From: a virus
Virus record (IMG/VR): IMGVR_UViG_3300027659_000069
Span: 1 to 42,971 of that record
DNA: 42,971 nt
Direction: 5' to 3' (one strand)
The notes beneath the pieces were generated by a model that worked only from the letters and a program-made list of their open reading frames with translations, was not told where the DNA came from and did no database searches. Both the position numbers and the translations under genes were made by a program. Of this stretch, positions 1,670 to 34,116 are shown in pieces; position 1 is the first letter of the stretch; each line of letters opens with the position of its first letter.

Positions 1670-1698
1670 ATCCCCGGCTAATCACCGGGGATTTTTTT
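1670..1698 (+). terminator. Intrinsic terminator of the helicase operon
   Basis: An 8-bp stem (ATCCCCGG at 1670-1677 with CCGGGGAT at 1685-1692), a 7-nt loop, and a T-run at 1692-1698. The T-run is only on the + strand side, so it ends rightward transcripts. The TGA stop of the opposing 2435-residue gene (1682-1684) lies in the loop. Confidence 0.88.
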
Positions 1699-4600
1699 CG
1701 GCCATACCAGTCAACTCTACTTTGCGCCGTTCTTCCATTTCTTTTTCCCTGCGCTCAAGCTTCTTCTCAAGGTTGCTAATAGCTTCGTCACCTATACCGT
1801 AGAACTTCTTAGTTGTGGTTACACCGGCTGGCGCTTTTTGACGTTGTTCGTCTTTTGTCTTCAAAGATTTCTTAATGTCTTTGATCTTCAACGAGTAGTC
1901 TGGGTATTGCTTGTTAAACTGTTCAACGTCTTTATCTATGATGTTGTCAAACTTAGCATCACCTTCGTCCGTACCCTTACGGTTTTGAATATCTAACTTG
2001 CGCAGTATCTTGTTACGTTCGTTCAGGATGTCCTGTTCTTTAGACAGCATTTTGAAACCAGCTTCTTTAACACTAGCGGTAAGCGCGGGGGCAAAACCAA
2101 TTATTTGGCCAACTTTTTCAGACGTCTTAACGTTTTCAGGCGCAACTAGCTCTACACCTGTTGCCGACTTGATACCTTCAACGTCATATTTTTGCGCAAG
2201 TAAGAAGTCTCTAATTGGTTTAGGCATCATCTTTTCGTTGCCCTTTTCATAGTCTCCAAGCATGTACTGTTCAACAGCGTCAACCATACTAGTTGCTACG
2301 CTTAAAGTGGGGCCACCAAAATACGCAGCCAAGAAACCTGCTGCGGCTTCTTTAACATTCTTAGTAGACTTACCGTCCTTTGCCCAAATGTCATTGAGAC
2401 CAATCCTTGAAGATACGCTCCAACCTGTAACAGCATTAACAGGGCCGTCCATAATCCATTCGTCGAGGGGTACTCCACCAACTGAATACTCACCAAACTT
2501 TTGCGGCATGTAAACTTCTCTGAGCCACATCTCTGGATCCATGTCTTTAAGTTCTTCAGGTAAGTCTTCCTCATCTACCTTGTCTTTAAGCCCAGCCACA
2601 ATACCGTGAATTAATATGGAGTAAGCAGGGATGCCCGCTAAACCCGCTATAGAACCAGCAGTCATGTAAATACCAATAAACTTAGCCAGCGCTTCTTTTT
2701 TACCCTCTTTGTTAAAGAACGGAAGCATCTTTAAAAAGTTACCAACTAATTGCTGAATCATAACCACGGGGTACATCTTCATTGCAAACGCAACACGCCC
2801 CACACCACGTTGCATCCAACGTGGTTTGTTTGTAGTCTCATAGTCGCCGAGCGCCTCACGAGTGTCATCAGCGGCTTGTTTAATTGCGTCGGCTTCGGAC
2901 AGTCCACGCTGTTTGCCCAAACGATACGAAGCTAGGTACACCACCTCACGGGTTAGGCGCTCCATGTTGTGCATTAATGCACCAGTTATAAGATACGCGG
3001 CTTCCTTGCCCCTACCTCTGACACTTTCTAAATCGGATACAGGGGTCTGAGAGTAATCGTACACCTGTGCAACGTAGGTAGACTGCGCCACATTCATGCG
3101 GGTCATAGCTTGAATAGCCCGCTTCTCATCTGCGGGTAAGTTCTTAGCGTTAGCAATACTGGGGGCAACGTAGCGGTGCGTGCCGTCTACATTCTCTTTA
3201 ACAACACCGTACTGATTTAAGTACGTTATCATTTTTCCAAGTTCTTTTGCCGTTCTAATAGGCGAGAAGCCATGGTTAGCCGCCAAGATAGGCAGGGCAG
3301 AGACATATATAGATATAGGCTGGATCAACGCAGTCGACGCACTAGTAAGTGTCCACAGGTACGTAACCCTGTTAGCTACTCCGGCAACTGCATCCCAAAC
3401 GTCCTGTGGTCTTGGTGACAACACAGTTGCTACACGCCGCTCCAACTCTTTTACATACGGTAGTAAGTATTCTCTACCTACGATACTATCCCTTGCGGCA
3501 GAAGTAACGTTACGCATCTTTTGCGCATATTTGAGGCGAGCCAACTGCACAGACATTTTTGCGGCTGTTTTAGCCACATTCTGAATAAAGTCGGTTCTAT
3601 AACCACCACGGCCTTTACGATGGCGGAACATCAGACGGAAGCTTTGCTCGGGCATTGTGTTCAAGAACACTTGGTACACAGAGTCTTTTAGATTTTCTTT
3701 GTAGGCGTTTGTTGTGCCTTCTGTATCCCCAGCAGGAAGCTTAATAGCATCGATTGCTCTAAAGATAGAAGTTAGCAGTTGGCTAGAATCCTTGGCAGTG
3801 TTACGCAAAGCATCAAGGTCGTCGCCTAACTCCATCTCTCCTGAGTCACGCATCTCCTCAATGGATTGTCTTTTCTCTCCGGCAATACGTGCGGCGTCTT
3901 CGTCACGTTCTGTTGCGGATTCATAAATATAAAACGCTCTAGTGGGAGAGGTTGATTTGCCGACAGCCAACCAGAAGTCACCTTCGTCACGCACAAATGG
4001 GAAGAAAGGTTTGATCCGATCTTTGGTCTCGTACGTCTGACGAATAACAGCGGCTAAATTGCTTTTAACTTCATCGGTTAAACCAGAGATACCACGTACC
4101 TGCTCATCTAATAACTCAATGAATAAATCACCCATGTCAACGTAGTAGTCGCGCCACATTTTGTACAACTCTTGACCTTTTGCGCCAAGTGCTTTGTACT
4201 CGGCATCAAACTTCTTATCGCGCACCTTTTGCGTTGTATCCGACGGGTCGTACTGAGCATCCGTCGTTTTGTATATCATCTGGGTTAGCTTCTCTTCCAA
4301 AGTCTTGTCGGCTTTAAAAGCATTACGTGTTACACGGATGCGTTCTTCTGCGGCCTCAAGAAGTGCCTTGGTCATACCCTTCATGTCATTGTGCAAGTCC
4401 AGTGCTTGTTGAACTTGTGGCAGATCGTTTTTAACCCAGTCGGCCAAAAAGTCCCAAGTTGGGAGTCGCACCGCCACTGCACGTTGGCTGCTACTCATTT
4501 TCTTCCAAGCACCCTTGAACAGTATCTTGGCCTTCTCTGGGTCTCTAAGCTTTTGCAACATCCCAGCGTTCTTAACTTTCTGAGAGTCTGCAGATTGTTG

Positions 4601-7600
4601 ATATGTAATCTCAGCCTTTACGCGAGCCTTAGTAAGTTCTTTGGCGGTGCGCAGTTCTTTTTGTTCGCCCTTATCCGCGTCTTCATCAAACTCAGGGGGG
4701 GTGTAGTTAATCTTTTGTGGGAGTGCGCCACCTTTTGTATCAACTTTGGTCAGCCTTGTGCCGAGCATTTTGTCAGTAATATCGACTAGATCAGTAAACG
4801 CAGTGGCATCTCCGGCCTTAACACCAAACAAATCACGGATGCTGTCGACAAAACCAGAGAAGCCTGTGCCACGTTTACCTTGCACGCTCATCAAGAACTT
4901 CTGGAACTCAGGGCTAGACATGCCGTAAGCCAAGAACTCATGAGGATCGGAGAACACACCAATAGATACTTTGCCCGTTCTGTCGCGGTCAGTAGTGCCC
5001 TCAATCATTTTCTGCACTTCTGGGGATAGTTCGCCAAACAGCACGCCTTCTTCATACGCTTCTTGCGTACGCTTCATTAGGCTTTCCATCTCACGCATAA
5101 ACTTCTGCAGGCTAGCGTTTTTAAATCCTTTGAATAGACCTGCGTCAATACGACTAGCCGTTGCTGCGTGTAGCAATTCGTGCAACACTGTTATAACGTT
5201 TATACCTTGTTGGTCTCCGAAGCTACTACCACGCACGTATATGGTACGTTCTTTAGATCCCGGGGTATAAACAAACAAACCACGCGCACCGCTTAGCTGA
5301 GCTGGTATTGAATCGCCCTTCTCAACCACCACAAACTTAACGTTAATTACAAAGTTACGGATACGCTGCGCTACAAACCGTTGGAATAGATTACCAGTCT
5401 TAATGATGTGCGCAATTGCTTGTGAACCGTTAGTCAGCCCGCTAAACCCTGTGTCGGCTTTAGCTACTTTAACGTCCGATGACTTGCTAGCTTTAGATTC
5501 TGTTTTACCTGATACACCCGGGGCTGAGACTGCGCCAAGTACATCTTCTTTGGGGCCAGAAAGAACATCTTGAGCGGCTTTGATACCCCGGCGAATGTCA
5601 GCAAGCTCTGCTTCCGTAGCCTTAGAGTTTTTAATGTCTGCGCTAATCCGTTTGCCTATTGCGCTGCCACGAGCAATGTTAGGGTTACCCTGTAGTTCTA
5701 ACAAACCACGAAGCGCGCTGCGCCGAGACTGTCGTGCGTCAATCTCAGCTTGCTCAGCTTCTTCAAAGCTAAGTTCTTCAATCTGCTCTGGCGTTAAAGT
5801 CTGGTTAAGTTGGGCAACAAACTTCTTTCGGTTGTACTCAGCGTCGTTGTTAATTCGAGTTTGTTCGTTACGGGTTAACTTCTTCTGTTCCTTAACTTCA
5901 GGGGGTGCGGCTGGACGACCACGAGTTTTACCGGCTACTGCTCCGGCTGGTGGTGCTTCTTGTCCTTCTTGCGTTGTTTCGATGGTTTCAGAGGTTTCAG
6001 TGCCAACGTCGGCTCCTTTAGTTTTTGTGGAAGGTTTAGTTTTATCAAGCCCAGTATCAAACAAACCGACTGATGAGTGTTGGTCGTCACTGAACCTAAT
6101 ACCATCGTACCCCAAAGCTTTAAGCGGGCCAATAATGTCTTTCTTTAATTGGTCACCATACGCAGAACTAAATTTTGTAAGCCCCCAAAAGCCACTGTTA
6201 AGTTGAGTGGTGCTATCTGGGTCAGTCTTATCCCGTGCGTCAAATTTAGCCGCGTCTACAAGATCACTGCCGACTCTAGTGGTCGGTGTTAAGCCCGCAA
6301 TTACATCCCGTCCTTCTGGAGTAGAAATGTCCAGTAGCTTTAACCCACTAAAGTCTTGTGTGATAATGCGCGAAGTCTTAGGCACAACCCCAGCCGTACC
6401 GCTGTCTGGATTGGTCATCTCTTCTGCTTGGGCTTGGCTCAGACTTGGGTACGCTTTATCAAGAGGTTGAATTGTGTCTTGGTTAATTAGTCCCTCTTCA
6501 GGAGCAACGCCGACCGCTTTCCACGTCTCACCGTCAAGCCCATAAATAACACCGTTACGATCAACAATGTATTTCTGTGTGTTATCGAGTCTTGCACGCC
6601 CACCACCACCATTTTGCGCATAACGCTCTGCAGTAGATAAGTCTTCACCAAAGAATACCATGCCCCCGCTTTTCTCTGGGTCAAGAGTGTCGTACTGCGT
6701 GTTTGTACCGTGGTACAGGGTGGTAGCTTTTTCTGGTGTAGCTTTTGGCGCTGCTTTTTTTTGGCGTTGGGTTATTTCTGTCTTTACAAGGTCGTACTCA
6801 ACATCGCTAAGACTAGTATTAGTAAGTTCTGTATCAAGCTGATCGTCCGATAACGCACGTACTGTTTCGGGTGTAACTGCTCCACGAGTTAGGGTAAATG
6901 GCGATGGCTTTGTTTCTTTAGTTACTTGCGGTAGTAGTTCTAAGTCATCTATGCTATCCGTTAAATTTTTTAATATTTGTTCGTTAGTTTGAACACCTTG
7001 AGCACCCAAATTTAATGAATTAAGGTCGTCGCCAATAACTCGTACGGTTGTATCTATTACTTTGCCAGACGCATCTCGAACAATTGTTAATGATGCTTGC
7101 TCACCCGCATACAATACAGGGAGGCTAGTTTTAGTCTCTCCCCCTTTTAATGCAGCCTGCTGTGTTCCTTCTCCAGTAGTAGCTCCTGCAACATCCTGTC
7201 CAGTAGGTACCACTCCACTTGGCTTAGCGACTCCAACTCCTCCGGCGGGGGGCTCTGCACTGGGCTGTCCAGCCACGCTAACGCTCTCTCCACTTGGTGT
7301 ACTGATAGGTTCAACAATATTTGTTGTTCCTCCTGTTTCGTCCTTTGCAAGCTCATCTGCTTGTGCCTCCTCTTGGGCTAGTTGTTGTGCGTCAAGCTTT
7401 GCCTGTTGTGGTGGAACCCCAGCCGCAATCAGTTCTTGTGCAATCTGCTCTTCACGACTTTCGGGTATCTTAATAGCCGCAGTTTTATTTTCGGCTTTTA
7501 TGGCATCGGCAACTCTACGTGCTGCCATATTTTTAGCAGTATCAGGAGGCGTGCCTAATGCAACCAATCGTTCGTATTCTTGTTGAACACGAGCTTCACG

Positions 7601-8989
7601 AACTGCATCGGGTGTTGTCTTTGGTATGGGTGGAGGTGGTGGAGGTGTCTCTTTTAAGTCATCGCTTGGACGCACTTCCCCAAGTTCACCTAAGTCCATA
7701 TTTACAGGTTCTTTTTGCGCAGCAAGTTCAGCGTTGATTGCGGCTTCTTGCTCAGCCATCCTAGCGTTACGTAAATTAGAACGCGCTTCTAGTGGAGCAG
7801 TAACGACTCCGGCCAAAGCCTCAAGCAACACATCGGCGGGTTTGTCATCACCTGTGGCTTTTTGTGCTATAAATTCACCGCCAGCACCGCCAGCCGTTTG
7901 GGTTGCCAGCTCTTTACCCCATGCCGCCATCGTAGCTTTTTTAGCCGCAGTACCAGCAAGTTTACCTTCAGCAATAAGAGCCTGCGCAGGTTTTAAGAAC
8001 CTACCAGCTACGCCCAGAGACAAGCCATCAATTACACCAATAATCAAACCGCGTTTAGCGGCTTTATCGCGCATCTCTGCAATAATTTTTGGGTTGGACA
8101 ACGCTTTAGATATTGCGTTTGCATCCAACATATTGACGCCTTTGTCCTGCAGGACGTCAGCCATAACCGAGCCATACTCAGTAGCGCCTGATGTAGAGCC
8201 TCCAGCAACGGATCTAGTTACAACTCCAGCGGGGCCGAGCACTAAAGCAGGAATCATACCGGGCAACGATACTGCCACGGACTCTACCAACATGGTAAAC
8301 GTTGCACGTGGGTTAGAAGCCAGAGCGGAGATAGCTTCGCCGTAGGTTTTGGAGTTACCGATTGCTTCCATACCCGCACGTATATCTTGGGAAGGGGCAG
8401 CGGCTGCTCTTTGTTTTGCATTGCGTGCTAGTAAGCGTCCCGCAGCATCAGCGTCGGCTACACCAGTTTGGAATAGGTAGCTTGTAGCAATATCACCCAG
8501 ACTTGCGTCTACGCGCTTAAACATATTGCCGGTTGCTTCTGCGGCGTACTTTACGGGGGATTCAGTAAATTTAGTTTCAGGTGTAGCTTTAATTTCACCA
8601 GCAGGTTCAGCCCTAGCGCGAGGCGGCGCAGGTACAGCCATTGGTGCTTGCTGTTTAAAGTAGTCACTACCCCGTTGCTGCCCGTGCTTAATTACGTCCT
8701 CAAAATTAACACCCATGCTTTGAAGAGACTGCTTTAATTTTGCTTGGTCAGCGCCCTCTTCAAGAAGGTTGACGGCATCGTCAAGCATTTCAACCCGATT
8801 TTTATACGGGGCGCGTTTAGGCTGCTCGGATATTTTTTCTACTACGGGGGTAGCCGGAGCAGGCGTTGGCGCGGGGGCTGGTCTGCTTTCCGCAATTAAA
8901 CTTTGAACGGTAGAATCAATAACGTCTGGGTTTGTGCCGTCGGGAAACCTTAGAACTCTTCCATCCGCGAGTTTTGCCTCGATTGCCAT
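1682..8989 (-). CDS. Giant polyvalent protein with ADP-ribosyltransferase-like and zinc-metallopeptidase-like domains
   Basis: 2435 residues, last gene of the leftward late block. The N-terminus (GRVLRFPDGTNPDVID) is a short module I recall at the start of large phage proteins. Residues 440-620 are Pro/Ala/Gln-rich linker. An ART-PolyVal-like domain spans about 757-980: LYHGT at 758-762, STAERYA at 785-791, and the closing GYDGIRF at 960-966. A metallopeptidase-like domain follows with HELLH at 1270-1274 and DPHEFLAYG (E1351 a likely third zinc ligand). The rest is mostly helical, with a hydrophobic, possibly membrane-inserting stretch around 2100-2135 and a charged C-terminal coil. Known: polyvalent proteins of phages carry several effector domains in one chain and are thought to enter the cell with the DNA. 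Inferred: an ejected internal virion protein that acts early on host targets. A purely structural role for the helical half is equally possible. Confidence 0.75.
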   Translation of the reverse strand: MAIEAKLADGRVLRFPDGTNPDVIDSTVQSLIAESRPAPAPTPAPATPVVEKISEQPKRAPYKNRVEMLDDAVNLLEEGADQAKLKQSLQSMGVNFEDVIKHGQQRGSDYFKQQAPMAVPAPPRARAEPAGEIKATPETKFTESPVKYAAEATGNMFKRVDASLGDIATSYLFQTGVADADAAGRLLARNAKQRAAAAPSQDIRAGMEAIGNSKTYGEAISALASNPRATFTMLVESVAVSLPGMIPALVLGPAGVVTRSVAGGSTSGATEYGSVMADVLQDKGVNMLDANAISKALSNPKIIAEMRDKAAKRGLIIGVIDGLSLGVAGRFLKPAQALIAEGKLAGTAAKKATMAAWGKELATQTAGGAGGEFIAQKATGDDKPADVLLEALAGVVTAPLEARSNLRNARMAEQEAAINAELAAQKEPVNMDLGELGEVRPSDDLKETPPPPPPIPKTTPDAVREARVQQEYERLVALGTPPDTAKNMAARRVADAIKAENKTAAIKIPESREEQIAQELIAAGVPPQQAKLDAQQLAQEEAQADELAKDETGGTTNIVEPISTPSGESVSVAGQPSAEPPAGGVGVAKPSGVVPTGQDVAGATTGEGTQQAALKGGETKTSLPVLYAGEQASLTIVRDASGKVIDTTVRVIGDDLNSLNLGAQGVQTNEQILKNLTDSIDDLELLPQVTKETKPSPFTLTRGAVTPETVRALSDDQLDTELTNTSLSDVEYDLVKTEITQRQKKAAPKATPEKATTLYHGTNTQYDTLDPEKSGGMVFFGEDLSTAERYAQNGGGGRARLDNTQKYIVDRNGVIYGLDGETWKAVGVAPEEGLINQDTIQPLDKAYPSLSQAQAEEMTNPDSGTAGVVPKTSRIITQDFSGLKLLDISTPEGRDVIAGLTPTTRVGSDLVDAAKFDARDKTDPDSTTQLNSGFWGLTKFSSAYGDQLKKDIIGPLKALGYDGIRFSDDQHSSVGLFDTGLDKTKPSTKTKGADVGTETSETIETTQEGQEAPPAGAVAGKTRGRPAAPPEVKEQKKLTRNEQTRINNDAEYNRKKFVAQLNQTLTPEQIEELSFEEAEQAEIDARQSRRSALRGLLELQGNPNIARGSAIGKRISADIKNSKATEAELADIRRGIKAAQDVLSGPKEDVLGAVSAPGVSGKTESKASKSSDVKVAKADTGFSGLTNGSQAIAHIIKTGNLFQRFVAQRIRNFVINVKFVVVEKGDSIPAQLSGARGLFVYTPGSKERTIYVRGSSFGDQQGINVITVLHELLHAATASRIDAGLFKGFKNASLQKFMREMESLMKRTQEAYEEGVLFGELSPEVQKMIEGTTDRDRTGKVSIGVFSDPHEFLAYGMSSPEFQKFLMSVQGKRGTGFSGFVDSIRDLFGVKAGDATAFTDLVDITDKMLGTRLTKVDTKGGALPQKINYTPPEFDEDADKGEQKELRTAKELTKARVKAEITYQQSADSQKVKNAGMLQKLRDPEKAKILFKGAWKKMSSSQRAVAVRLPTWDFLADWVKNDLPQVQQALDLHNDMKGMTKALLEAAEERIRVTRNAFKADKTLEEKLTQMIYKTTDAQYDPSDTTQKVRDKKFDAEYKALGAKGQELYKMWRDYYVDMGDLFIELLDEQVRGISGLTDEVKSNLAAVIRQTYETKDRIKPFFPFVRDEGDFWLAVGKSTSPTRAFYIYESATERDEDAARIAGEKRQSIEEMRDSGEMELGDDLDALRNTAKDSSQLLTSIFRAIDAIKLPAGDTEGTTNAYKENLKDSVYQVFLNTMPEQSFRLMFRHRKGRGGYRTDFIQNVAKTAAKMSVQLARLKYAQKMRNVTSAARDSIVGREYLLPYVKELERRVATVLSPRPQDVWDAVAGVANRVTYLWTLTSASTALIQPISIYVSALPILAANHGFSPIRTAKELGKMITYLNQYGVVKENVDGTHRYVAPSIANAKNLPADEKRAIQAMTRMNVAQSTYVAQVYDYSQTPVSDLESVRGRGKEAAYLITGALMHNMERLTREVVYLASYRLGKQRGLSEADAIKQAADDTREALGDYETTNKPRWMQRGVGRVAFAMKMYPVVMIQQLVGNFLKMLPFFNKEGKKEALAKFIGIYMTAGSIAGLAGIPAYSILIHGIVAGLKDKVDEEDLPEELKDMDPEMWLREVYMPQKFGEYSVGGVPLDEWIMDGPVNAVTGWSVSSRIGLNDIWAKDGKSTKNVKEAAAGFLAAYFGGPTLSVATSMVDAVEQYMLGDYEKGNEKMMPKPIRDFLLAQKYDVEGIKSATGVELVAPENVKTSEKVGQIIGFAPALTASVKEAGFKMLSKEQDILNERNKILRKLDIQNRKGTDEGDAKFDNIIDKDVEQFNKQYPDYSLKIKDIKKSLKTKDEQRQKAPAGVTTTKKFYGIGDEAISNLEKKLERREKEMEERRKVELTGMAEKNPR

Positions 8990-24270: not shown

Positions 24271-24693
24271 TTAGTTAGAAGAACGAATAAGAGCCGCCGT
24301 AGCGGTATTTGCTGGCATGGTGATTGTAAACGTGGTTGTAGATGTTTTGTCAGACCCGAAGTCCAAAACAGCTATGGATGGATTACCGGCAACGGTATCG
24401 TTGTAAATCAAAGCACATCTAGCCGTGATTGCCCCAGTCCATGAGATGTTTGGGAAGCTCACAAAAGCTGTGTATCCAGAAGACGATACCGTGATAGGCG
24501 TTAGTATTGCTCCGCCATTAACGTAAGTGCCTGTATTGGCTACTTCGTTTGTAGCTGAATACGTTGTTGTGTCTTCGTTTAAATTTGCGCTGGCTGTGTA
24601 CAGGGCAATCCTAATAACGTCGGTTGTCAAGTCATGAATACCTTGGTACAACTGCGCCTTAAACGAAGTGGTCTGAGTTTGAACAATAGACAT
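24271..24693 (-). CDS. Minor structural protein, unknown function
   Basis: 140 residues. N-terminal FKAQLYQGIHDLTTDVIRIALYTA is a phage structural-protein segment that I recall beside connector genes. The rest alternates beta strands with polar loops (YSATNEVANTGTY, GYTAFVSFPNISWTG, RCALIYNDTVAG, ATAALIRSSN). Shares one base with the connector-like gene upstream at 24693. By order in the cluster it could be a neck or tail-attachment subunit; nothing more can be shown. Confidence 0.62.
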   Translation of the reverse strand: MSIVQTQTTSFKAQLYQGIHDLTTDVIRIALYTASANLNEDTTTYSATNEVANTGTYVNGGAILTPITVSSSGYTAFVSFPNISWTGAITARCALIYNDTVAGNPSIAVLDFGSDKTSTTTFTITMPANTATAALIRSSN

Positions 24694-25352
24694 CAGGTCA
24701 CCGCCTGTCTATATTGACCAGAACGGTAAGCATCCTGACGCTCCATACCATCGCCCAGACGTTTAGCCAATGCAAGTGCTTCTTGATATTTGCCGTTGTA
24801 CAGCGCCATCATGTCTGGCTCACCCTTCATGTAGGTGTAAGCCTCAACCAGCGATGCGTACAAGAGCACGGGATCAAAGTTATCACCTAGCCAAGATGTA
24901 AACGGTGCCACAGTAATGCTTGGTGGGTAGAAGAAATAGTGCAGTTCTGCCCCATATGCGGCGTCTGGTGTTGGGCCAAGAATAAAAGTTAACTCGGCTG
25001 CGTTGTCTGAACGTGGGCCAAACAACGCATAGTACCTAGGAATTCCCGTGTCTGTGGGCTTTGGGTATGCCTGCCGAATAAAGTTAACATCTTTGTTTAA
25101 CAAGTACTCGTACTCGCCACTGGCGTTAATAATAGCTAAAGAATACACCGCCAAAAAATCCGTGGGGCACTGCAAGTACTTGTTGTTTGTTGTGGTTGCG
25201 CCTGTCACGTTACTGCGCAAAGACGGAAACTGTACCGAGTTGAATATACGCTCTTCAGCTTGCGTAACGAACACGGGGATATTAGCCACGAAATCTGCTT
25301 CCGTGTTCTCCGTGTACGCTTGAATCGCGTTGCTGAGTGCGGTGTAATTCAT
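24693..25352 (-). CDS. Head-tail connector / adaptor-like protein
   Basis: 219 residues. N-terminal helix TALSNAIQAYTENTEADFVA and IPVFVTQAEERIFNSVQFP are typical of a phage adaptor protein family known from SU10-like viruses. A beta insertion (KYLQCPTDFLAVYSLAI) is followed by a helical C-terminus (YASLVEAYTYMKGEPDMMAL; KYQEALALAKRLGDGM) as in gp4/gp6-like connector rings. Overlaps its upstream neighbour by 4 bp. It would sit under the portal and join the head to the tail hub. Confidence 0.66.
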   Translation of the reverse strand: MNYTALSNAIQAYTENTEADFVANIPVFVTQAEERIFNSVQFPSLRSNVTGATTTNNKYLQCPTDFLAVYSLAIINASGEYEYLLNKDVNFIRQAYPKPTDTGIPRYYALFGPRSDNAAELTFILGPTPDAAYGAELHYFFYPPSITVAPFTSWLGDNFDPVLLYASLVEAYTYMKGEPDMMALYNGKYQEALALAKRLGDGMERQDAYRSGQYRQAVT

Positions 25353-25609
25353 GCCATCGGGCCTCTGGCTGTAATGCCTTTAGTGGCCGCGCCATTACCA
25401 CGGGTGACAATACCGGAGGTTTTGGTTTCATTCTGACCGTTGTTAATAACGCCAACGCTCATCTTCATGGTGCTAAGACTACTAATGCTAGAGTCTTTGC
25501 CGGGGTTCTCCGACATCACTAGAGGCTTGCCGTTCATTTTGTGCGGTGCAGCATAAGTAGCAGCGTCGCCAACTTCTTTACCCATAACTTTTTTGCTAAA
25601 TTTAGCCAT
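25349..25609 (-). CDS. Small basic late protein with divergent C-terminal tag
   Basis: 86 residues. Polar, Lys- and Ser-rich N-terminal half; the C-terminus SGIVTRGNGAATKGITARGPM is a diverged form of the RADG-x-A-x-KGKT-x-G tag on four proteins encoded at 27.7-29.7 kb. No fold motif. It starts 2 nt after the 57-residue gene upstream (stop at 25612) and overlaps the connector start by 4 bp. Unknown role; probably a virion-associated or assembly peptide of the same set. Confidence 0.65.
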   Translation of the reverse strand: MAKFSKKVMGKEVGDAATYAAPHKMNGKPLVMSENPGKDSSISSLSTMKMSVGVINNGQNETKTSGIVTRGNGAATKGITARGPMA

Positions 25610-25794: not shown

Positions 25795-26184
25795 CTAAGT
25801 AACTGTTACCGTAACTGTACCAACATTTGTCGTTGCCACCAAGTAATTTGGTGTCATACCTACATCAAAATAGCTAGCCCCACCTACTGGGTTCCAGCCC
25901 CACTGAATATCCCGCGAACCCCCAGTCGGACTGCCAGCAGTATTTACGCCCGCTGTGACATACGTTGAGTCTGTACGTGGGTTACGCACTGCTTGCGGAT
26001 CATCAACTGGGTACATACCTAACTGCAACTGAGGCTGGTCAGGATCCCAACACTGAGGGCACACAAGCAGGTTATATATCTTAGTCTTCTGAATCTCTTT
26101 TTTTAACGCTGTCAATTTGTACTGGAAGCCACACCTATCGCACATGGCAATACTGTTTTTGCCAGAAGCAAACCGATTACCCAT
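25795..26184 (-). CDS. Zinc-ribbon protein of the neck cluster
   Basis: 129 residues. CDRCGFQYK and VCPQCWDPDQPQLQL form a CxxC...CxxC zinc ribbon at about residues 15-45, followed by the conserved MYPVDDPQAVRNPRTDSTY and a low-complexity Gly/Thr/Val-rich tail (TVGTVTVTV at the end). I recall the same zinc-ribbon plus DPQA-RNPR module in many aquatic phage contigs, always between adaptor genes. It shares a single base with the 316-residue adaptor-like gene (stop/start overlap at 26184). A structural zinc site in a neck protein is more likely than DNA binding, but this is inference. Confidence 0.72.
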   Translation of the reverse strand: MGNRFASGKNSIAMCDRCGFQYKLTALKKEIQKTKIYNLLVCPQCWDPDQPQLQLGMYPVDDPQAVRNPRTDSTYVTAGVNTAGSPTGGSRDIQWGWNPVGGASYFDVGMTPNYLVATTNVGTVTVTVT

Positions 26185-27134
26185 CAGGAGCCCCCGCCAA
26201 TAAACTGTTGTCGAGGCACAAAACGAATAGCCGCTTTCTCTCGGTCTTCAGATGCGGCTAACTCCCAAGCTTCGTCATACTGTTGTTTTAATACAGGTAA
26301 GCGCTCAGCGCCACCGGCAATCTTTAACGCCAAATAGAATGCGAGGCCAGCGGCCAAACAGGGGATAAATCTAAACGGCACGTCCATCACGTTCACACCA
26401 CCACCTGCGTCCTGCGTGCGGCGTAAGCGCCAGTAAACAAACGTGTACTGCTGTGACCCATCAGGAGTTGGCCAAACTGTAATAGCCGGAACCTGCGCCC
26501 AGTACACGGTAGCCGCAGCGGTATGTCCTACAGCAATAGTCTCTTGTTGACCACGGGAGCAGTTAAACAGCGTGCCAGAGTTAGCGTTTGCGGTCTGGGT
26601 GATGTAGCTGTAATTGATGATCTCGTCATCGATCTTAATGAAGCCAGTTGCTGGCAAACCCCTTACATCGTTCAACACAACTGATGTGCTGGTAGACGTA
26701 ATCGTCGTTGTAAGCGTTGCAGAAATAGGAGAGTTCTGGCCGTTATATCGCTGAATCCAGACTTGAATTGGTCTGGCTTGTTGAATTTTATTTGGGATCG
26801 TGGCGTACGTAGAAACACTAATACGTGTGATCGTTAGATCGGCCTGTGTATTAGCTGCGTTAGGCTGCGTACGGATAACGTGCTCAATCAGATCAACTGT
26901 ATTGTCTGGCAGGGCGTATGTATTCTGGCCCTGAACAAGAGTGATCTCACCCTGCTCCATCGTCCACATATTGATACCGCGATTGGCCCAGTCTGCAAAC
27001 ATAATGTTCAAACTACGACGAGCAGTACGCAAGTCATAGCCAGTGCGCAGCTCACCACCGGCGCGTTCAAACGCCTCCTCGACCAATTCATCGAGTTGGA
27101 GATTAAAACCTGATGCGCCAGAAGTGGTTGCCAT
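26184..27134 (-). CDS. Neck/adaptor-like virion protein with inserted beta domain
   Basis: 316 residues. N-terminal helices FNLQLDELVEEAFERAGGEL and LRTARRSLNIMFADWANRGI are characteristic of a conserved podovirus-type adaptor protein. MWTMEQGEITLVQGQNTYAL leads to beta strands; about 145-225 is a separate Thr/Ser-rich beta insertion (VVLNDVRGLPATGFIKIDDE, then CSRGQQET). The C-terminal helices (FIPCLAAGLAFYLALKIAGG; YDEAWELAASEDREKAAIR) resemble connector rings. It shares one base with the genes on both sides. A second connector ring or tail-tube-like ring is likely. Confidence 0.66.
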   Translation of the reverse strand: MATTSGASGFNLQLDELVEEAFERAGGELRTGYDLRTARRSLNIMFADWANRGINMWTMEQGEITLVQGQNTYALPDNTVDLIEHVIRTQPNAANTQADLTITRISVSTYATIPNKIQQARPIQVWIQRYNGQNSPISATLTTTITSTSTSVVLNDVRGLPATGFIKIDDEIINYSYITQTANANSGTLFNCSRGQQETIAVGHTAAATVYWAQVPAITVWPTPDGSQQYTFVYWRLRRTQDAGGGVNVMDVPFRFIPCLAAGLAFYLALKIAGGAERLPVLKQQYDEAWELAASEDREKAAIRFVPRQQFIGGGS

Positions 27135-27475: not shown

Positions 27476-27755
27476 GATAGCCACCACCTGCGGCTTTGTA
27501 TCGTTTAGCCATAACCTGCGCTTTACGTGCTGACCACTGACCTGCACCAGTTCCTACGATTGCCGCAGCTTTGACGCTGTTAAAAATCCGTTTACGTAAC
27601 TCAGGCTTGGTGTAGTTGCCAGCTTCGTTTACCTTAGACTTTACTTTGCCGCCCTCTTTGTACTGGGTGAAGTCAGTGTCATCCCTACGCTTCTTGCGTA
27701 CACCTTTTGGCATTTTGCTGGGGGAGATGGCTCCCATTCCACGGCTGGCTATCAT
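27468..27755 (-). CDS. Small basic conserved late protein, unknown function
   Basis: 95 residues, rich in Lys, Arg and Gly: SRGMGAISPSKMPKGVRKKR, FTQYKEGGKVKSKVNEAGNY, TKPELRKRIFNSVKAAAIVG, then GQWSARKAQVMAKRYKAAGG. I recall this family as recurrent in aquatic phage contigs. The basic, helical second half could bind nucleic acid or package with DNA. It carries a KEGG form of the GG motif. ATG at 27755 overlaps the preceding stop by 4 bp. Confidence 0.7.
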   Translation of the reverse strand: MIASRGMGAISPSKMPKGVRKKRRDDTDFTQYKEGGKVKSKVNEAGNYTKPELRKRIFNSVKAAAIVGTGAGQWSARKAQVMAKRYKAAGGGYRD

Positions 27756-28252
27756 ACAAACCTGCCTTTGGTTTTACCTTTAGTGGCAATACCATCAGCA
27801 CGGCGGGAAGCTGAAGACGCTTTAGAAGTCATGCCACCGGAAGCCATCTTTTTGACTTTGCCTCCACGCTTCATGGCTGATGCACCGGCATTTAATTCTT
27901 CATCTCGTGGCTTAGATCCACCACTACCACCAGCAAATTGGCCTTGATCCCCGTATCCGGGAACGGCGTACTCACCTTCTTCAGAACGTTTTACTAGTTC
28001 ACGTTTTGCAAGTGTGGAATCAAAACCACGTACTGGAATTTCAGCCGTCTTCGCTAATTCCCGCGCGTCGGCCACATCATACATAGGGTCGTCAGCCCTA
28101 CCGCTTCTGTTATCAGCATATACACGTTTACGGAGCATATCGTTATAGGCATCCGCTGCCGCTACCTGCGCTGGGTCGTAACTAGCTCCCGAAACCCGAA
28201 ATGCATCCGAGCTACGAGTAACTCGTGGCGGTAAAGATAATTTTGTAGCCAT
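27752..28252 (-). CDS. Late protein with RADG...GKT C-terminal tag (1)
   Basis: 166 residues. The body is polar (DPAQVAAADAYNDMLRKRVY; RELAKTAEIPVRGFD) with no known fold. The last 33 residues are MKRGGKVKKMASGG followed by SRRADGIATKGKTKGRFV. The same end occurs on the next three genes, whose bodies are unrelated. Overlap with the downstream gene is 4 bp and the upstream gap is 2 nt. Because the bodies differ while the ends match, the tag is probably a portable functional peptide; what it binds is unknown. Confidence 0.68.
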   Translation of the reverse strand: MATKLSLPPRVTRSSDAFRVSGASYDPAQVAAADAYNDMLRKRVYADNRSGRADDPMYDVADARELAKTAEIPVRGFDSTLAKRELVKRSEEGEYAVPGYGDQGQFAGGSGGSKPRDEELNAGASAMKRGGKVKKMASGGMTSKASSASRRADGIATKGKTKGRFV

Positions 28253-28254
28253 AG

Positions 28255-28902
28255 TTACACCATCTTTCCACGGGTTTTACCCCGTTGAGCAATGCCGTCG
28301 GCGCGGCGGGAAGCGGTTACACCACCGGAGGCCATCTTTGTAACAGGCTTCATACCTGCGGGTTTACCCGCCTTAGAGAACGACATGAACCTAGCAGTCA
28401 TACCGCCTTTTTTCATATTCGCTTCGTCTTTACCAGAATAGGCTTTACGTTCTTTATCCTCGGCTTCAGTTTCACGCCGATAGTTATCAACTTCTTCTTC
28501 ATCTAGACGAGCCTTAGCATCTTTAGACAGCTCAACCTTGTCGCGCTTATTAGCTGCTTTTTCAGCGGCACTACCAAGGCCAGATTTATCAACTATTTTT
28601 TTACCGACGCCGGTTTCTTCATCTAGTTTTTTGCCAACCGCATAGCCAGCTTCAGCGGCAAGTCCAGCAAGCCCCGCACGGCCAGCGGTACGTGTAATTG
28701 CTCTGCCCGCAGCATTTTGGACTTGTGATCGGTTTTGTGCCCTAGTTCCAGAAGTGTCTAAGCCCCGTTTAATGCGCTCATTATCGGCACTCTGTGACGC
28801 CGCTACATCCTCGCGCAAATTAGGCGCTACATCTTTTGCGTTTGTTTGCCCGGGAGAACGGTACGTATACCCTTCGCGTGCTGGTTTATTAAGGCGTCCC
28901 AT
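28255..28902 (-). CDS. Late protein with RADG...GKT C-terminal tag (2)
   Basis: 215 residues, very charged. N-terminal GRLNKPAREGYTYRSPGQTN; middle helical (RAGLAGLAAEAGYAVGKKLD, then a long Lys/Asp/Glu-rich helix with SKDAKARLDEEEVDNYRRE) that may be coiled coil; then MKKGGMTARFMSF and KMASGGVTASRRADGIAQRG with KTRGKMV at the end. The tag is the same as on its neighbours. It has 2-nt gaps on both sides. The Gly/Ala helical segment could be amphipathic. No function known; likely part of the tagged small-protein set. Confidence 0.68.
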   Translation of the reverse strand: MGRLNKPAREGYTYRSPGQTNAKDVAPNLREDVAASQSADNERIKRGLDTSGTRAQNRSQVQNAAGRAITRTAGRAGLAGLAAEAGYAVGKKLDEETGVGKKIVDKSGLGSAAEKAANKRDKVELSKDAKARLDEEEVDNYRRETEAEDKERKAYSGKDEANMKKGGMTARFMSFSKAGKPAGMKPVTKMASGGVTASRRADGIAQRGKTRGKMV

Positions 28903-28904
28903 AG

Positions 28905-29132
28905 TTACACCATCTTTCCGCGAGTCTTACCTTTAGTAGCACACCCATCAGCACGGCTGGAGGCGGAACCACCTTTGGCATAGCCTTTTTGTCCACGAAC
29001 AGCGTCGCGTGGGTCTTTCTTTTTAGGCGCTTCTTCCGTGCTGGTTAAAGACTCAGAGTAAGCTTTTTCAGTGGCCGCGTTCATCTTTCGCTCGGCCATC
29101 TCTTCCCGCGCTGCTTTTTCTGCTGGACTCAT
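28905..29132 (-). CDS. Late protein with RADG...GKT C-terminal tag (3)
   Basis: 75 residues, the shortest of the tagged set. N-terminal amphipathic helix SPAEKAAREEMAERKMNAAT, a short acidic/basic linker (EAPKKKDPRDAVRGQKGYAK), then GGSASSRADGCATKGKTRGK and MV. The tag makes up a quarter of the protein. In this copy Cys replaces the Ile of RADGI. A good SD (AGGAG, from actcctt on the + strand) precedes the ATG at 29132. Role unknown. Confidence 0.68.
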   Translation of the reverse strand: MSPAEKAAREEMAERKMNAATEKAYSESLTSTEEAPKKKDPRDAVRGQKGYAKGGSASSRADGCATKGKTRGKMV

Positions 29133-29142
29133 GATTAACTCC

Positions 29143-29688
29143 TTAACAGGCTTTGCCGCCGCTCTTAAGCATTTTGCCTTTAGTCTTGCCTTTTACAGCA
29201 ATACCATCAGCGCGTTTAGAGGCGGAGCCGCCATTCGCCATACCACCCATATTCATTTTTTTCATAGCCGCGCCGCCGTGTTTCATGCCTTTGCCGTCAC
29301 CGATAAACGCGGGCTTTCCGTCTTTCATGGGCATAGCGCCGCCACTAGACATTTTCATGGCTGAATTTTTCATCATTTTACCGTCAGGCATCTTGTGCAT
29401 GCCGTCTTTTCGCTTAGCCATTATTGCCATCATTCCGGGGTTCATTTTAGTAGCCATAGTATTACCGCCTTCTTTCATAATTGACATCTTGCCGTGAAGT
29501 GTCTTAGGTTTGTTAACTTTTTGAAGATCGGGGCGGGACGTATTGGTGTCCTTGCCAAACTTCATTCCTTTGCTCACGCCGCTAAATTCTTTAGCAACCG
29601 ATACCGGTACACCCGCAGCTTTTGCAAACTTCGGGTTGTGTGCAGCAGCATCCATGAACTGCTTTTGTTTGTTACTCGTCGCTGGCAT
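29143..29688 (-). CDS. Met/Lys/Gly-rich late protein with RADG...GKT tag (4)
   Basis: 181 residues from the second of two adjacent ATGs (29688), which has the better SD spacing (GGAG at 6 nt); the first ATG overlaps the upstream stop as TAATG and would add one residue. N-terminus: PATSNKQKQFMDAAAHNPKF and AGVPVSVAKEFSGVSKGMKF, a conserved late-protein segment. The rest is extreme in Met, Lys and Gly (KRKDGMHKMPDGKMMKNSAM) with repeated K-x-GG and MKxGG motifs, ending ASKRADGIAVKGKTKGKML then KSGGKAC. Unlike the other tagged proteins it has seven residues after the tag. Function unknown. Confidence 0.68.
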   Translation of the reverse strand: MPATSNKQKQFMDAAAHNPKFAKAAGVPVSVAKEFSGVSKGMKFGKDTNTSRPDLQKVNKPKTLHGKMSIMKEGGNTMATKMNPGMMAIMAKRKDGMHKMPDGKMMKNSAMKMSSGGAMPMKDGKPAFIGDGKGMKHGGAAMKKMNMGGMANGGSASKRADGIAVKGKTKGKMLKSGGKAC

Positions 29689-29690
29689 CA

Positions 29691-30383
29691 TTATCTCCTA
29701 CGCTGGATAAGTCCGCCACGCAAATATTGCTCGTATTCTTCAACGTCAAAATTATTTTTTCCATAACCACTGTCTTGCGGCATAAAATCACCACCAGCGC
29801 CGCCTTGTGGCATGTACCCACCGCCGGGGCCAGAAGGGAAAACAAGTTCTTGTTGGGGGCCAACTTCCGGCGTAATACCATATATACGTTCACGTAAGGC
29901 ATCAAGTTGTGCAGGTGTAAAGTTACTTTCTACAGGCACGCTTTCTAGTCTTCTTGGGAGCATTGTTTCGTTAAACTTAAATCGTTCACTATCTTCTGCG
30001 TCAGGGCCAACGTAATAAGATGACGCGGGATTAATAGTGCCGTAAGTTTCGTTACGTAAAGTGTCTTCAAATTTAACTCTACCCTCCGGTGAATTTGTTC
30101 GCGCCTGTATCTCTTCCATTAGCCGTTCTTCTTCATTTAGGTCTATACCTTGTGGGTACTGGCTACCGTAAAGTGTGCGGGCAGCGTTCTCTATCGTGTT
30201 TTGTGCGCTTGGTAAACTACTACGAACACCAAACTTGTCTGTAAGGTAGTTAATCAGTTGGTTACCGTAATACGTTTGCGGACTTAAAATCTTAAGTAAG
30301 TCGTCCTGCTCTTTAAAAGTAGGTCGTGTATAGGCGTACTCACGCCCAAGTAAGCTAGCAAGTCCAAGCAAAGGCGCGGCCAT
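29691..30383 (-). CDS. Late protein, unknown function
   Basis: 230 residues. N-terminal hydrophobic/Leu-rich start (APLLGLASLLGREYAYTRP), acidic helical middle (LNEEERLMEEIQARTNSPEG), a YYVGPDAEDSERFKFNETML segment and a Gly/Pro/Met-rich end (GGGYMPQGGAGGDFMPQ) with DVEEYEQYLRGGLIQRRR at the C-terminus. The terminal RGGL is a looser version of the GG motif of its neighbours. No domain recognised. Two-nt gap to the upstream gene; shares a base with the downstream start. Confidence 0.62.
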   Translation of the reverse strand: MAAPLLGLASLLGREYAYTRPTFKEQDDLLKILSPQTYYGNQLINYLTDKFGVRSSLPSAQNTIENAARTLYGSQYPQGIDLNEEERLMEEIQARTNSPEGRVKFEDTLRNETYGTINPASSYYVGPDAEDSERFKFNETMLPRRLESVPVESNFTPAQLDALRERIYGITPEVGPQQELVFPSGPGGGYMPQGGAGGDFMPQDSGYGKNNFDVEEYEQYLRGGLIQRRR

Positions 30384-30581: not shown

Positions 30582-30839
30582 TCAGCACTTCCATCTTGCA
30601 AGAGCAGCCGCCTTACGGGTGGGCTTACCCTTCTCGTCTTTCATGGGGCCGGGCATACCTGACATACGTGCGCAGAACGAATCCTTGCGCTTACCACCTT
30701 GTGGCTGTGGAGCCTTCAGGTTACTACCCGTAGCCGCGTTGTACTTAGCGCGGCCTTTGGCAGTCAAGCCCGCCCCCTTGGATATTGGCAATTTCTCGCC
30801 TCTTCCAACTGATAAAACGGGGCCTTTCTTTTTAGCCAT
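30582..30839 (-). CDS. Small basic conserved protein (LTAKGRAKYN...SFCARM family)
   Basis: 85 residues, Lys/Gly/Arg-rich: KGAGLTAKGRAKYNAATGSN, LKAPQPQGGKRKDSFCARMS, then a DEKGKPTRKAAALARWKC end. I recall this domain (annotated as DUF6321 in some databases) in many marine and freshwater phages and cyanophages. Cys in SFCARM and the C-terminal Cys are conserved in my memory. It might bind nucleic acid or act in packaging/assembly; no evidence here decides. Overlaps the next upstream gene by 8 bp. Confidence 0.72.
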   Translation of the reverse strand: MAKKKGPVLSVGRGEKLPISKGAGLTAKGRAKYNAATGSNLKAPQPQGGKRKDSFCARMSGMPGPMKDEKGKPTRKAAALARWKC

Positions 30840-32012: not shown

Positions 32013-32453
32013 ATGAAATACCGCATTGCCCCTGTTGATACTCGCCGGTCAGAGGTGGTGCAACTACTGACGTTGCTTCAAAAAGCATGTCTTCCCCACG
32101 ACAAAATTTACCCAATTACTCAAGGATACTGGTATGTCGCTTACACACAAAACGGTGAGGCTGCTGGGTTCGCTGGTGTTGTTCCCTCTAGTCGTTGGTC
32201 TGACACTATGTATCTTTGTCGGGCAGGTGTTGTACGCGCTCATCGTGGACGCGGGCTTCAGAAAAGGTTTATTAAAGCGCGGATTCGCAAAGCCAAGGCG
32301 CTAAAAATGAACTGGGTCATCACTGACACCAATCAAAACCCGGCATCCGCTAACAGTTTGATAGCTATGGGTTTCAAAATGTTTGAGCCATCTAAACCTT
32401 GGGGTTTTAAAACGGCGTTGTACTGGCGATACCGGATCAAACATGCCGTATAA
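32013..32453 (+). CDS. GNAT-family N-acetyltransferase
   Basis: 146 residues from ATG at 32013 with AGGGG just upstream; an alternative start at 31962 lacks an SD. It would transfer acetyl from acetyl-CoA to an amine. Motif A appears as VVRAHRGRGLQKRFIKARIR with the R-x-x-G-x-G-type pyrophosphate loop (RGRGLQ); the preceding strand is DTMYLCRAGVV, and NPASANSLIAMGFKMF is the typical following helix-strand. Length is usual for a single GNAT domain. It is read against the late strand, in a two-gene operon with an HNH nuclease gene that overlaps its end by 11 bp. Substrate unknown; phage GNATs can modify host proteins, antibiotics or virion parts. Call is by motif. Confidence 0.85.
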   Translation: MKYRIAPVDTRRSEVVQLLTLLQKACLPHDKIYPITQGYWYVAYTQNGEAAGFAGVVPSSRWSDTMYLCRAGVVRAHRGRGLQKRFIKARIRKAKALKMNWVITDTNQNPASANSLIAMGFKMFEPSKPWGFKTALYWRYRIKHAV

Positions 32454-32823
32454 AGACCCAAAAGTTAAGCAAATTAAACAAAAGACGTACGCAAGTACGT
32501 ACTATGCCAACAATAAGGCGACTGTAATTGCGGCAAGTAAAGCCTCGGCCAAGGCGTATAAAGATCAGTGGCGTAGCTTTAAAGCTACATTAGCCTGCGT
32601 AAAGTGTGGGCAAAACCACCCGGCCACGTTTGATTTCCATCACATAGACAGCAGTACCAAAGAGGCATCAGTTAATAAACTGCTCAAAAACAGAGCATTT
32701 AAACGTGCTATGGAAGAGGTCAAGAAATGCGTTGTGCTCTGTGCCAACTGCCACCGTATACACCATCACGACGAGCGCATTGCCAAGAAAGCCAAAAAGA
32801 AAAAAGGGGCCGAAGCCCCCTGA
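32443..32823 (+). CDS. HNH endonuclease-like protein
   Basis: 126 residues from ATG at 32443, which overlaps the GNAT stop by 11 bp. N-terminal basic helices (PYKDPKVKQIKQKTYAS) bind DNA in this type. CVKCGQNHP and LCANCHRIHHHDE are the two zinc Cys pairs; FDFHHIDSS holds the catalytic HH, giving the HNH/McrA-like order C-x-x-C, HH, C-x-x-C-H...H. The end is Lys-rich and encoded by the A-run that also serves as the T-run of the opposing terminator. Such free-standing HNH genes are often mobile (homing) in phages. With GNAT it forms an insertion-like cassette against the late strand. DNA cleavage is inferred from the motif. Confidence 0.82.
   Translation: MPYKDPKVKQIKQKTYASTYYANNKATVIAASKASAKAYKDQWRSFKATLACVKCGQNHPATFDFHHIDSSTKEASVNKLLKNRAFKRAMEEVKKCVVLCANCHRIHHHDERIAKKAKKKKGAEAP
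32794..32820 (-). terminator. Leftward terminator inside the end of the HNH gene
   Basis: On the minus strand GGGGC-TTCG-GCCCC (32819-32806), then a T-rich run (32805-32794, TTTTTCTTTTT). The TTCG tetraloop and T-run make a strong intrinsic terminator for the 78-residue acidic gene. It is wholly within the HNH coding sequence. Confidence 0.85.
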
Positions 32824-33198: not shown

Positions 33199-34116
33199 TT
33201 AGGTTGAACCAGAAGATCCAAACATACCCAATGGGTCAGACCAGCCGAAGCTGTAACGCTCACGAGCCTTATAACGAACGTTTCCAGTGTCAAAATCCCC
33301 ATCCATTTTGTTCTCCAAAGGAGAGCGGATGAAGTGCTTCAGACCGTTAGGCACGTCAGTACACAAGAACCAAGCGTTTGTGTCTGTCAAGTAGTTGTTG
33401 ACTGTGTAGCCTTCAGGGATAGAACCGTTGTTTTTCAACGCATTAATATCATTGTCAGCAGTACCAACACGCAATGAAGTCTCGAGCAAACGAGTTGCCG
33501 TAAACTGCAGTGCAGGAGGAACAATCAACTTCCTTGGCTTAGCAGCAATCAACAAGCCACGCTCATCAGTCCAAGCAGCGATCTGAATAACGGCGGCTTC
33601 CAAAGAAGTCTCGTTCAAATCAGCTTGAGTAGATGGGGTGTTGCTGTTAGTACCGCCAGAGATCAAGGGGTGTGCTGTGCTAAACAGAGGAACGCCATCA
33701 CCACCGAAATAAACGGCAGAGTTAGTGAAACCATTGTTTAAAGTGGATGCAGCTTTAACCTGCTTGGTATAAGCCATAGCACGAGCCAAAGCTTTGGTGT
33801 AGCGAGCAGACAAGCTGTCGTACAAGTTATCTTCAACCGCTTCTTCAGTGATTGAGAAACCCAAGGCAATAGTTTCGTGTACGTAACGAGCCGTAAATGC
33901 TTCTTGTGCATTGTCATAAGCGATGGCAGAGCCTTCGTTCTTAACAGGTGCGGCAGAGAAGCCAGACAGTTTCGTCTCTTCTTCGAACGAACGCTCTGAA
34001 GTTTCGGTTTCATAAATTTCTTTATGTTGTTCACCGTAACGAGCGTACTCCATACCGAACAAAGCGTTCAGGCCGGGGAGCAGTTCTTTAAGTAGTTGTG
34101 CGCGGGAAATAGCCAT
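33199..34116 (-). CDS. Major capsid protein, Mu gpT-like
   Basis: 305 residues. It forms the icosahedral shell. The sequence AISRAQLLKELLPGLNALFG, LGFSITEEAVEDNLYDSLSA, RYTKALARAMAYTKQVKAAS and DGVPLFSTAHPLISGG matches the Mu-like major head subunit gpT family of the HK97 fold; length is typical. No N-terminal delta-domain is evident and no prohead protease gene is found, as expected for a separate scaffold. Upstream lie a small virion-protein gene, a conserved gene and the scaffold; a strong terminator follows. The start ATG at 34116 has an AGGAG-like SD (ctcct on the + strand). Confidence 0.9.
   Translation of the reverse strand: MAISRAQLLKELLPGLNALFGMEYARYGEQHKEIYETETSERSFEEETKLSGFSAAPVKNEGSAIAYDNAQEAFTARYVHETIALGFSITEEAVEDNLYDSLSARYTKALARAMAYTKQVKAASTLNNGFTNSAVYFGGDGVPLFSTAHPLISGGTNSNTPSTQADLNETSLEAAVIQIAAWTDERGLLIAAKPRKLIVPPALQFTATRLLETSLRVGTADNDINALKNNGSIPEGYTVNNYLTDTNAWFLCTDVPNGLKHFIRSPLENKMDGDFDTGNVRYKARERYSFGWSDPLGMFGSSGST

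What the first reader, a model, noticed from the sequence alone, without database searches (positions are those of the whole stretch)
27752..29691. Four adjacent proteins with unrelated bodies share one C-terminal tag
Genes at 27752, 28255, 28905 and 29143 all end in S-x-RADG-x-A-x-(K/R)GKT-(K/R)G, each preceded by A-x-GG; a diverged copy ends the gene at 25349. The bodies differ in length (75-215 residues) and sequence. A portable C-terminal peptide on several late proteins suggests a targeting or docking signal, for example for loading into the prohead or binding a common partner, as a capsid-cargo tag would do. I know of no described function, so this is the best candidate here for an undescribed system.
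Basis: partly seen in the sequence, partly recalled or inferred. Interest (0 to 1): 0.8.

Follow-up and report, generated by a model that had tools for sequence, protein, structure and literature searches.

The report
Portable C-terminal tag in phages
A whole lineage of freshwater and marine viruses of bacteria puts the same short tail-end peptide on a fast-changing set of otherwise unrelated small proteins made alongside the virus shell, which looks like an undescribed address label that docks them to the particle as it is built.

Summary
Four late proteins with unrelated bodies end in one tag, and a related tag ends the 25349 gene. A pattern that did not require a stop codon found more than 120 viral contigs. 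Of 173 tags there with a stop in view, 138 end exactly 3 residues before it, 33 end 10-17 before it, and 2 are further in. A scrambled pattern found none in 2.9 million contigs, and 85,000 bacterial and archaeal species gave 5 hits, only one plainly chance. Selection is at protein level: first and second codon positions are fixed, third positions drift, and conservation ends at the stop codon. Two sister dialects (RGxGAAxKGxxARGPMA, RGxGAAxRGTKFxGVF) are also strictly C-terminal, and 310 of 317 scanned loci carry the same podovirus-like head module. Tagged genes sit in a hypervariable island of that module. The tag is cleanly added to or absent from the same DUF6321 protein, and AlphaFold leaves it disordered. 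The best reading is a docking or packaging tag that works like the T4 capsid-targeting sequence but is C-terminal and unrelated in sequence. Virion location and partner are untested.

The parts
27755..27814 (-). type-1 C-terminal tag SASRRADGIATKGKTKGRFV
27752..28252 (-). tagged late gene, 166 aa, no known domain
28258..28317 (-). type-1 C-terminal tag TASRRADGIAQRGKTRGKMV
28255..28902 (-). tagged late gene, 215 aa; weak match to phrog_28519, function unknown
28908..28967 (-). type-1 C-terminal tag SASSRADGCATKGKTRGKMV
28905..29132 (-). tagged late gene, 75 aa
29167..29226 (-). type-1 tag SASKRADGIAVKGKTKGKML, followed by KSGGKAC (29146-29166)
29143..29691 (-). tagged late gene, 182 aa; N-terminal module phrog_16759, which also begins phrog_22033 and phrog_25121 (named virion structural protein)
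25352..25423 (-). type-2 tag KTSGIVTRGNGAATKGITARGPMA
25349..25609 (-). one-per-genome small gene with variable N-terminus and type-2 tag, just upstream of the SU10-type adaptor
30582..30839 (-). DUF6321 gene without tag here; 11 of 111 relatives carry the tag appended after the terminal WxC
33199..34116 (-). major capsid protein (Phage_capsid_4 / Mu gpT type), marks the head module the tag belongs to
26184..27134 (-). SU10-type adaptor, far boundary of the tagged island
24693..25352 (-). SU10-type adaptor, next to the type-2 tagged gene

Best explanation
The 16-20 residue tail is a portable docking signal read as a disordered linear peptide. A component of this phage lineage's conserved head and neck module binds it during assembly, so that a fast-changing set of small late proteins is recruited to, and most likely packaged in, the particle. 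It works like the capsid-targeting sequence of T-even internal proteins, but it is C-terminal, is not visibly cleaved, and comes in lineage-specific dialects. Shown here: tag, position, portability, lineage restriction, protein-level selection, body turnover, predicted disorder. Inferred: binding, the identity of the partner, packaging, and delivery of the bodies.
For: C-terminal at a fixed distance although the search did not require it (type 2; type 3). Scrambled control 0. Phage-only. About 87 body clusters for type 1 and 34 for type 3. 213 of 213 type-1 tags on the strand of the structural genes, nearly all between MCP/DUF6321 and the adaptor. Core head markers in 115 of 120, 78 of 78 and 117 of 119 tag loci against 0 of 13 control loci. 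Sampling by MCP rather than by tag: 23 of 27 loci have strict tags inside the island, the other 4 show relaxed forms, and all 39 strict tags lie inside the island. DUF6321 with a clean tag graft in 11 of 111. The same body family (phrog_16759) carries type 1 here and type 3 in L282. Tagged bodies are shared with 15% of other genomes against 84% for core genes. Tags on unrelated bodies of one genome are more alike than between genomes, 0 of 1000 permutations. AlphaFold: body folded, tag pLDDT below 50. The DUF6321 fold is also in a protein named 'Virion protein' in Synechococcus phage S-SCSM1. T-even internal proteins are described as highly diverse with only a conserved targeting sequence (PMC3012670).
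Against: No proteomics or structure places any tagged protein in a virion. No partner was found: every core head gene shared by type-1 and type-3 carriers also occurs in tagless relatives such as HTVC027P and CRP-901. The large presumed ejection proteins (1682, 8999, 10562, 11651) lack the tag, so it is not the only way into the particle. No prohead protease domain was found.
Confidence: 0.5

Rival explanations
1. The tag docks the proteins to a partner inside the infected cell that is not part of the virion, for example a host complex or a phage assembly or lysis factor.
For: Nothing shown requires the virion; the genes are simply late. Tagless relatives keep the same head genes.
Against: Tags occur almost only with one head-module lineage, inside the head gene block. 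That lineage infects very different hosts (Pelagibacter; cyanobacteria), which fits a phage-encoded partner better than a host one.
Confidence: 0.22
2. The tag is a short basic tail that binds packaged DNA, making the proteins internal DNA-condensing proteins without a specific partner.
For: The tag is rich in K and R, and tagged bodies are on average positively charged.
Against: Invariant R, D, G, A, G, T at fixed spacing to the stop are more than a charge pattern needs; some tagged proteins carry little net charge (28905: 17 positive, 11 negative).
Confidence: 0.12
3. The tag binds the outside of the capsid or the neck, so that the bodies are exterior decoration proteins.
For: Cement-type genes lie next to the island.
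Against: Bodies look disordered in composition and match no decoration family. This is a sub-case of docking to the particle and cannot be separated here.
Confidence: 0.1
4. The shared end is a DNA-level element, such as a recombination site for cassette exchange or a ribosome-binding signal for the next gene.
For: Two junctions in the window share the 20 bases GGAAAGATGGTGTAACTATG, and next genes often start at the stop codon.
Against: Third codon positions vary (0.03-1.1 bits) while first and second positions of the invariant residues are fixed, and conservation ends at the stop. Within a genome 53% of third bases differ.
Confidence: 0.03
5. The genes are diverged duplicates of one ancestor and the tail is the last conserved part.
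For: Genes are adjacent and share linker composition.
Against: Bodies fall into about 87 clusters including the separate known families DUF6321 and phrog_16759, and DUF6321 exists with and without the tag.
Confidence: 0.03

Closest known systems
T-even internal proteins (IPI, IPII, IPIII, Alt) with the capsid-targeting sequence
   Same: A short shared peptide on a highly diverse set of small head proteins; bodies turn over while the peptide stays (PMC3012670).
   Different: The T4 signal is N-terminal and removed by the prohead protease (own knowledge); here the signal is C-terminal, unrelated in sequence, and no prohead protease domain was found.
Encapsulin cargo-loading (targeting) peptides
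   Same: A short C-terminal peptide on unrelated proteins, in a system with an HK97-type shell (PMC8346489 abstract; C-terminal detail from own knowledge).
   Different: Here a complete phage with terminase and portal; bodies show no enzyme domains; motif unrelated.
Crassvirus capsid and tail cargo proteins
   Same: Virus-encoded proteins stored in the particle (PMC10172136).
   Different: Those are large conserved proteins, and no shared short signal came up in the passages read; here the proteins are small, variable and tagged.
DUF6321, phrog_16759 and phrog_27331 carrier families
   Same: Known phage protein families that serve as bodies.
   Different: No Pfam, PHROGs or NCBIfam model was seen to cover the tag itself.

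Membership tests
T4 capsid-targeting sequence / internal proteins | one short peptide shared by unrelated small bodies | tested here: met
T4 capsid-targeting sequence / internal proteins | peptide at the N-terminus | tested here: not met
   the tag is C-terminal in all but 2 of 173, and in 121 of 121 for type 3
T4 capsid-targeting sequence / internal proteins | cleavage by a prohead protease | tested here: inconclusive
   no protease domain by Pfam in the head proteins scanned; cleavage itself not testable
T4 capsid-targeting sequence / internal proteins | tagged proteins are inside the mature head | not testable with these tools
   needs virion proteomics
Encapsulin cargo peptide | short C-terminal peptide on cargo | tested here: met
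Encapsulin cargo peptide | dedicated non-phage shell and enzyme cargo | tested here: not met
   terminase, portal and phage MCP present; no enzyme domains in 82 tagged proteins
Paralogous family with a conserved C-terminal domain | homologous bodies | tested here: not met

The most novel reading that the evidence does not exclude
A previously undescribed superfamily of C-terminal virion-targeting peptides, with at least three dialects that follow phage lineage, by which a widespread podovirus-like lineage loads an interchangeable set of effectors into its particles.
Probability: 0.4. Interest if true: 0.9.

Novelty: new variant of a known kind. Interest (0 to 1): 0.78.

Why it matters
If it is a loading signal, one short motif would flag every candidate internal or injected protein of a large group of environmental phages, most of which are now unannotated, and would give a peptide for packing foreign proteins into phage heads. 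Even without a mechanism, a strictly C-terminal peptide kept on dozens of unrelated bodies and tied to one head module points to a specific unknown binding partner that can be looked for directly.

Tried and rejected
Short-peptide tblastn against cultured phages found nothing beyond the phages the queries came from, probably because of low-complexity masking and short length. PDB sequence searches with MCP, adaptor, tagged protein and tag gave nothing, and the DUF6321 model had no PDB match. Profile comparison of type 1 and type 3 proteins aligned the right residues but is not significant (P 0.09); their kinship rests on equal spacing to the stop, intermediates and a shared body family. A partner search by presence and absence gave no gene unique to tag carriers. 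AlphaFold of the 25349 protein gave low confidence (mean pLDDT 60, pTM 0.15). Literature searches for the motif strings and DUF6321 found no relevant paper; only open-access PMC text was searchable. The Simplicispira genome match is a chance internal match and the Patulibacter one a chimeric contig end. DNA-level explanations were tested by codon position and dropped.

Full report
Observation. The DNA pattern for R-A-D-G-x-A-x-(K/R)-G-K-T-(K/R)-G occurs four times in the window and never in 100 shuffles. Without their tails the four bodies show no significant similarity once low-complexity sequence is filtered.

Beyond the window. In those loci plus the window it marks 173 tags with a stop codon in view; 138 end exactly three residues before the stop, 33 end 10-17 residues before it, and two lie further in, one of them because a second, variant tag follows it in the same protein. 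A scrambled version of the pattern gave no match at all. In genomes of about 85,000 bacterial and archaeal species there were five loci: three on metagenome-binned contigs with phage-like tagged genes, one chimeric contig end, and one chance internal match.

Dialects. The tail of the 25349 gene (type 2) is found in more than 120 loci, 144 of 145 at one fixed distance from the stop, one gene per contig, with a highly variable front half. A third pattern, RGxGAAx(K/R)GxxFxG, gave 121 tags, all within three residues of the stop, on about 34 body clusters. Types 1 and 3 put R, G, A, K/R and G at the same distances from the C-terminus (-16, -13, -11, -9, -8). RGDG variants are common, and intermediates such as RGCGIASRGKTRGRMV and RGGGCEIRGKTKGKMV exist. 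One body family (phrog_16759) carries type 1 in the window and type 3 in L282. Types 1 and 3 were not seen together in one contig except where a type-2/3 intermediate sits at the 25349 position. Direct profile comparison of the two is not significant, so kinship is likely but not proven.

Selection. In 171 type-1 tags the first and second codon positions of the invariant residues carry close to 2 bits, third positions mostly 0.03-1.1 bits, and conservation stops at the stop codon. Within one genome 53% of comparable third bases differ, against 70% expected from codon usage alone. The peptide is kept, not the DNA.

Portability. In an alignment of DUF6321 proteins most end at WxC, while others continue with the tag. 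Over 111 distinct relatives, 96 end there, 11 carry the tag directly after it, one has another tail, and 3 could not be judged. The window's own copy is untagged. AlphaFold gives the DUF6321 part pLDDT of roughly 70-87 and the tag below 50, as expected for a linear docking peptide.

Context. Gene order is TerL, portal, GroES-like, scaffold-like, two small genes, MCP, cement-like genes, DUF6321, the tagged island, adaptor, small genes including the type-2 gene, SU10-type adaptor. All 213 type-1 tags tested lie on the strand of these markers and nearly all between MCP/DUF6321 and the adaptor. Core markers of this head module occur in 115 of 120 type-1, 78 of 78 type-2 and 117 of 119 type-3 loci, and in none of 13 control loci drawn with an arbitrary 15-mer; the control set is small. 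Sampling instead by MCP, 23 of 27 loci spanning the island have strict tags; the remaining four show relaxed forms, and all 39 strict tags lie in the island. In 16 genomes, tagged bodies have a relative in 15% of the other genomes (22 of 38 in none), untagged neighbours in 34%, core genes in 84%. So the tail is fixed while the bodies turn over.

Cultured carriers. HTVC023P has two type-3 proteins (gp32, gp51) and Pag-Yong1 one type-1-like protein. Relatives HTVC027P, 023Pt_psg01, CRP-901, DSL-LC04, QDWS535, RLK and ct2G2228 show none in the regions read.

Mechanism. A fixed, disordered, C-terminal peptide on interchangeable late proteins, tied to one head module, is best explained by docking to a component of that module during assembly. 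[quoted passage not shown] The resemblance is functional only: position and sequence differ and cleavage was not seen, so membership is not claimed. The bodies would then be internal or injected proteins; their functions are unknown and no enzyme domain was found. I put 0.5 on docking that leads to packaging, and the rest on non-virion docking, DNA binding, exterior decoration and minor alternatives. The partner is not identified; candidates are the shared head proteins, all of which also occur in tagless relatives.

Limits. Scans stopped at 120 loci, contigs are fragments, gene calls in scripts were simple, the patterns themselves define what was collected (RGDG forms are under-sampled), and no virion proteomics was available for any tagged phage.

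Noticed in passing
L257:24459-28680 and L264:20162-24369: Three adjacent glycine-rich structural proteins of 443-491 aa in HTVC023P, and three in phage 023Pt_psg01, share another C-terminal end, GGSGIVIIRYKFQ.
   Followed up: no
window, junctions at about 28905 and 28255: The 20 bases GGAAAGATGGTGTAACTATG are identical at the ends of the 28905 and 28255 genes and run into the start of the next gene, suggesting recent exchange at the junction.
   Followed up: partly
L198, gene at 1253: One short protein joins a module like that of the window's 25612 gene (AKFGKNMAKVMNQG) to a type-2 tag, a natural fusion of two genes that are neighbours here.
   Followed up: no
window 1682-8989: 2435-aa protein with sub-threshold matches to ART-PolyVal and LPD39, that is, a large polyvalent protein possibly injected with the DNA; no tag.
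   Followed up: no
window 32443-32823: Plus-strand gene with an HNH-like end (CANCHRIHHHDE) lies between MCP and the cement-like gene, probably a homing endonuclease insertion.
   Followed up: no
L129:162-1841: A Patulibacter MAG contig end fuses an acyltransferase-like frame to a tagged phage tail, apparently a chimeric assembly.
   Followed up: partly
L005, - strand tagged ORF of 176 codons: One protein carries two tags in tandem (RADGMAHKGKTKGKMV then KGADGIASKGKTRGKIV), the only double tag seen.
   Followed up: no
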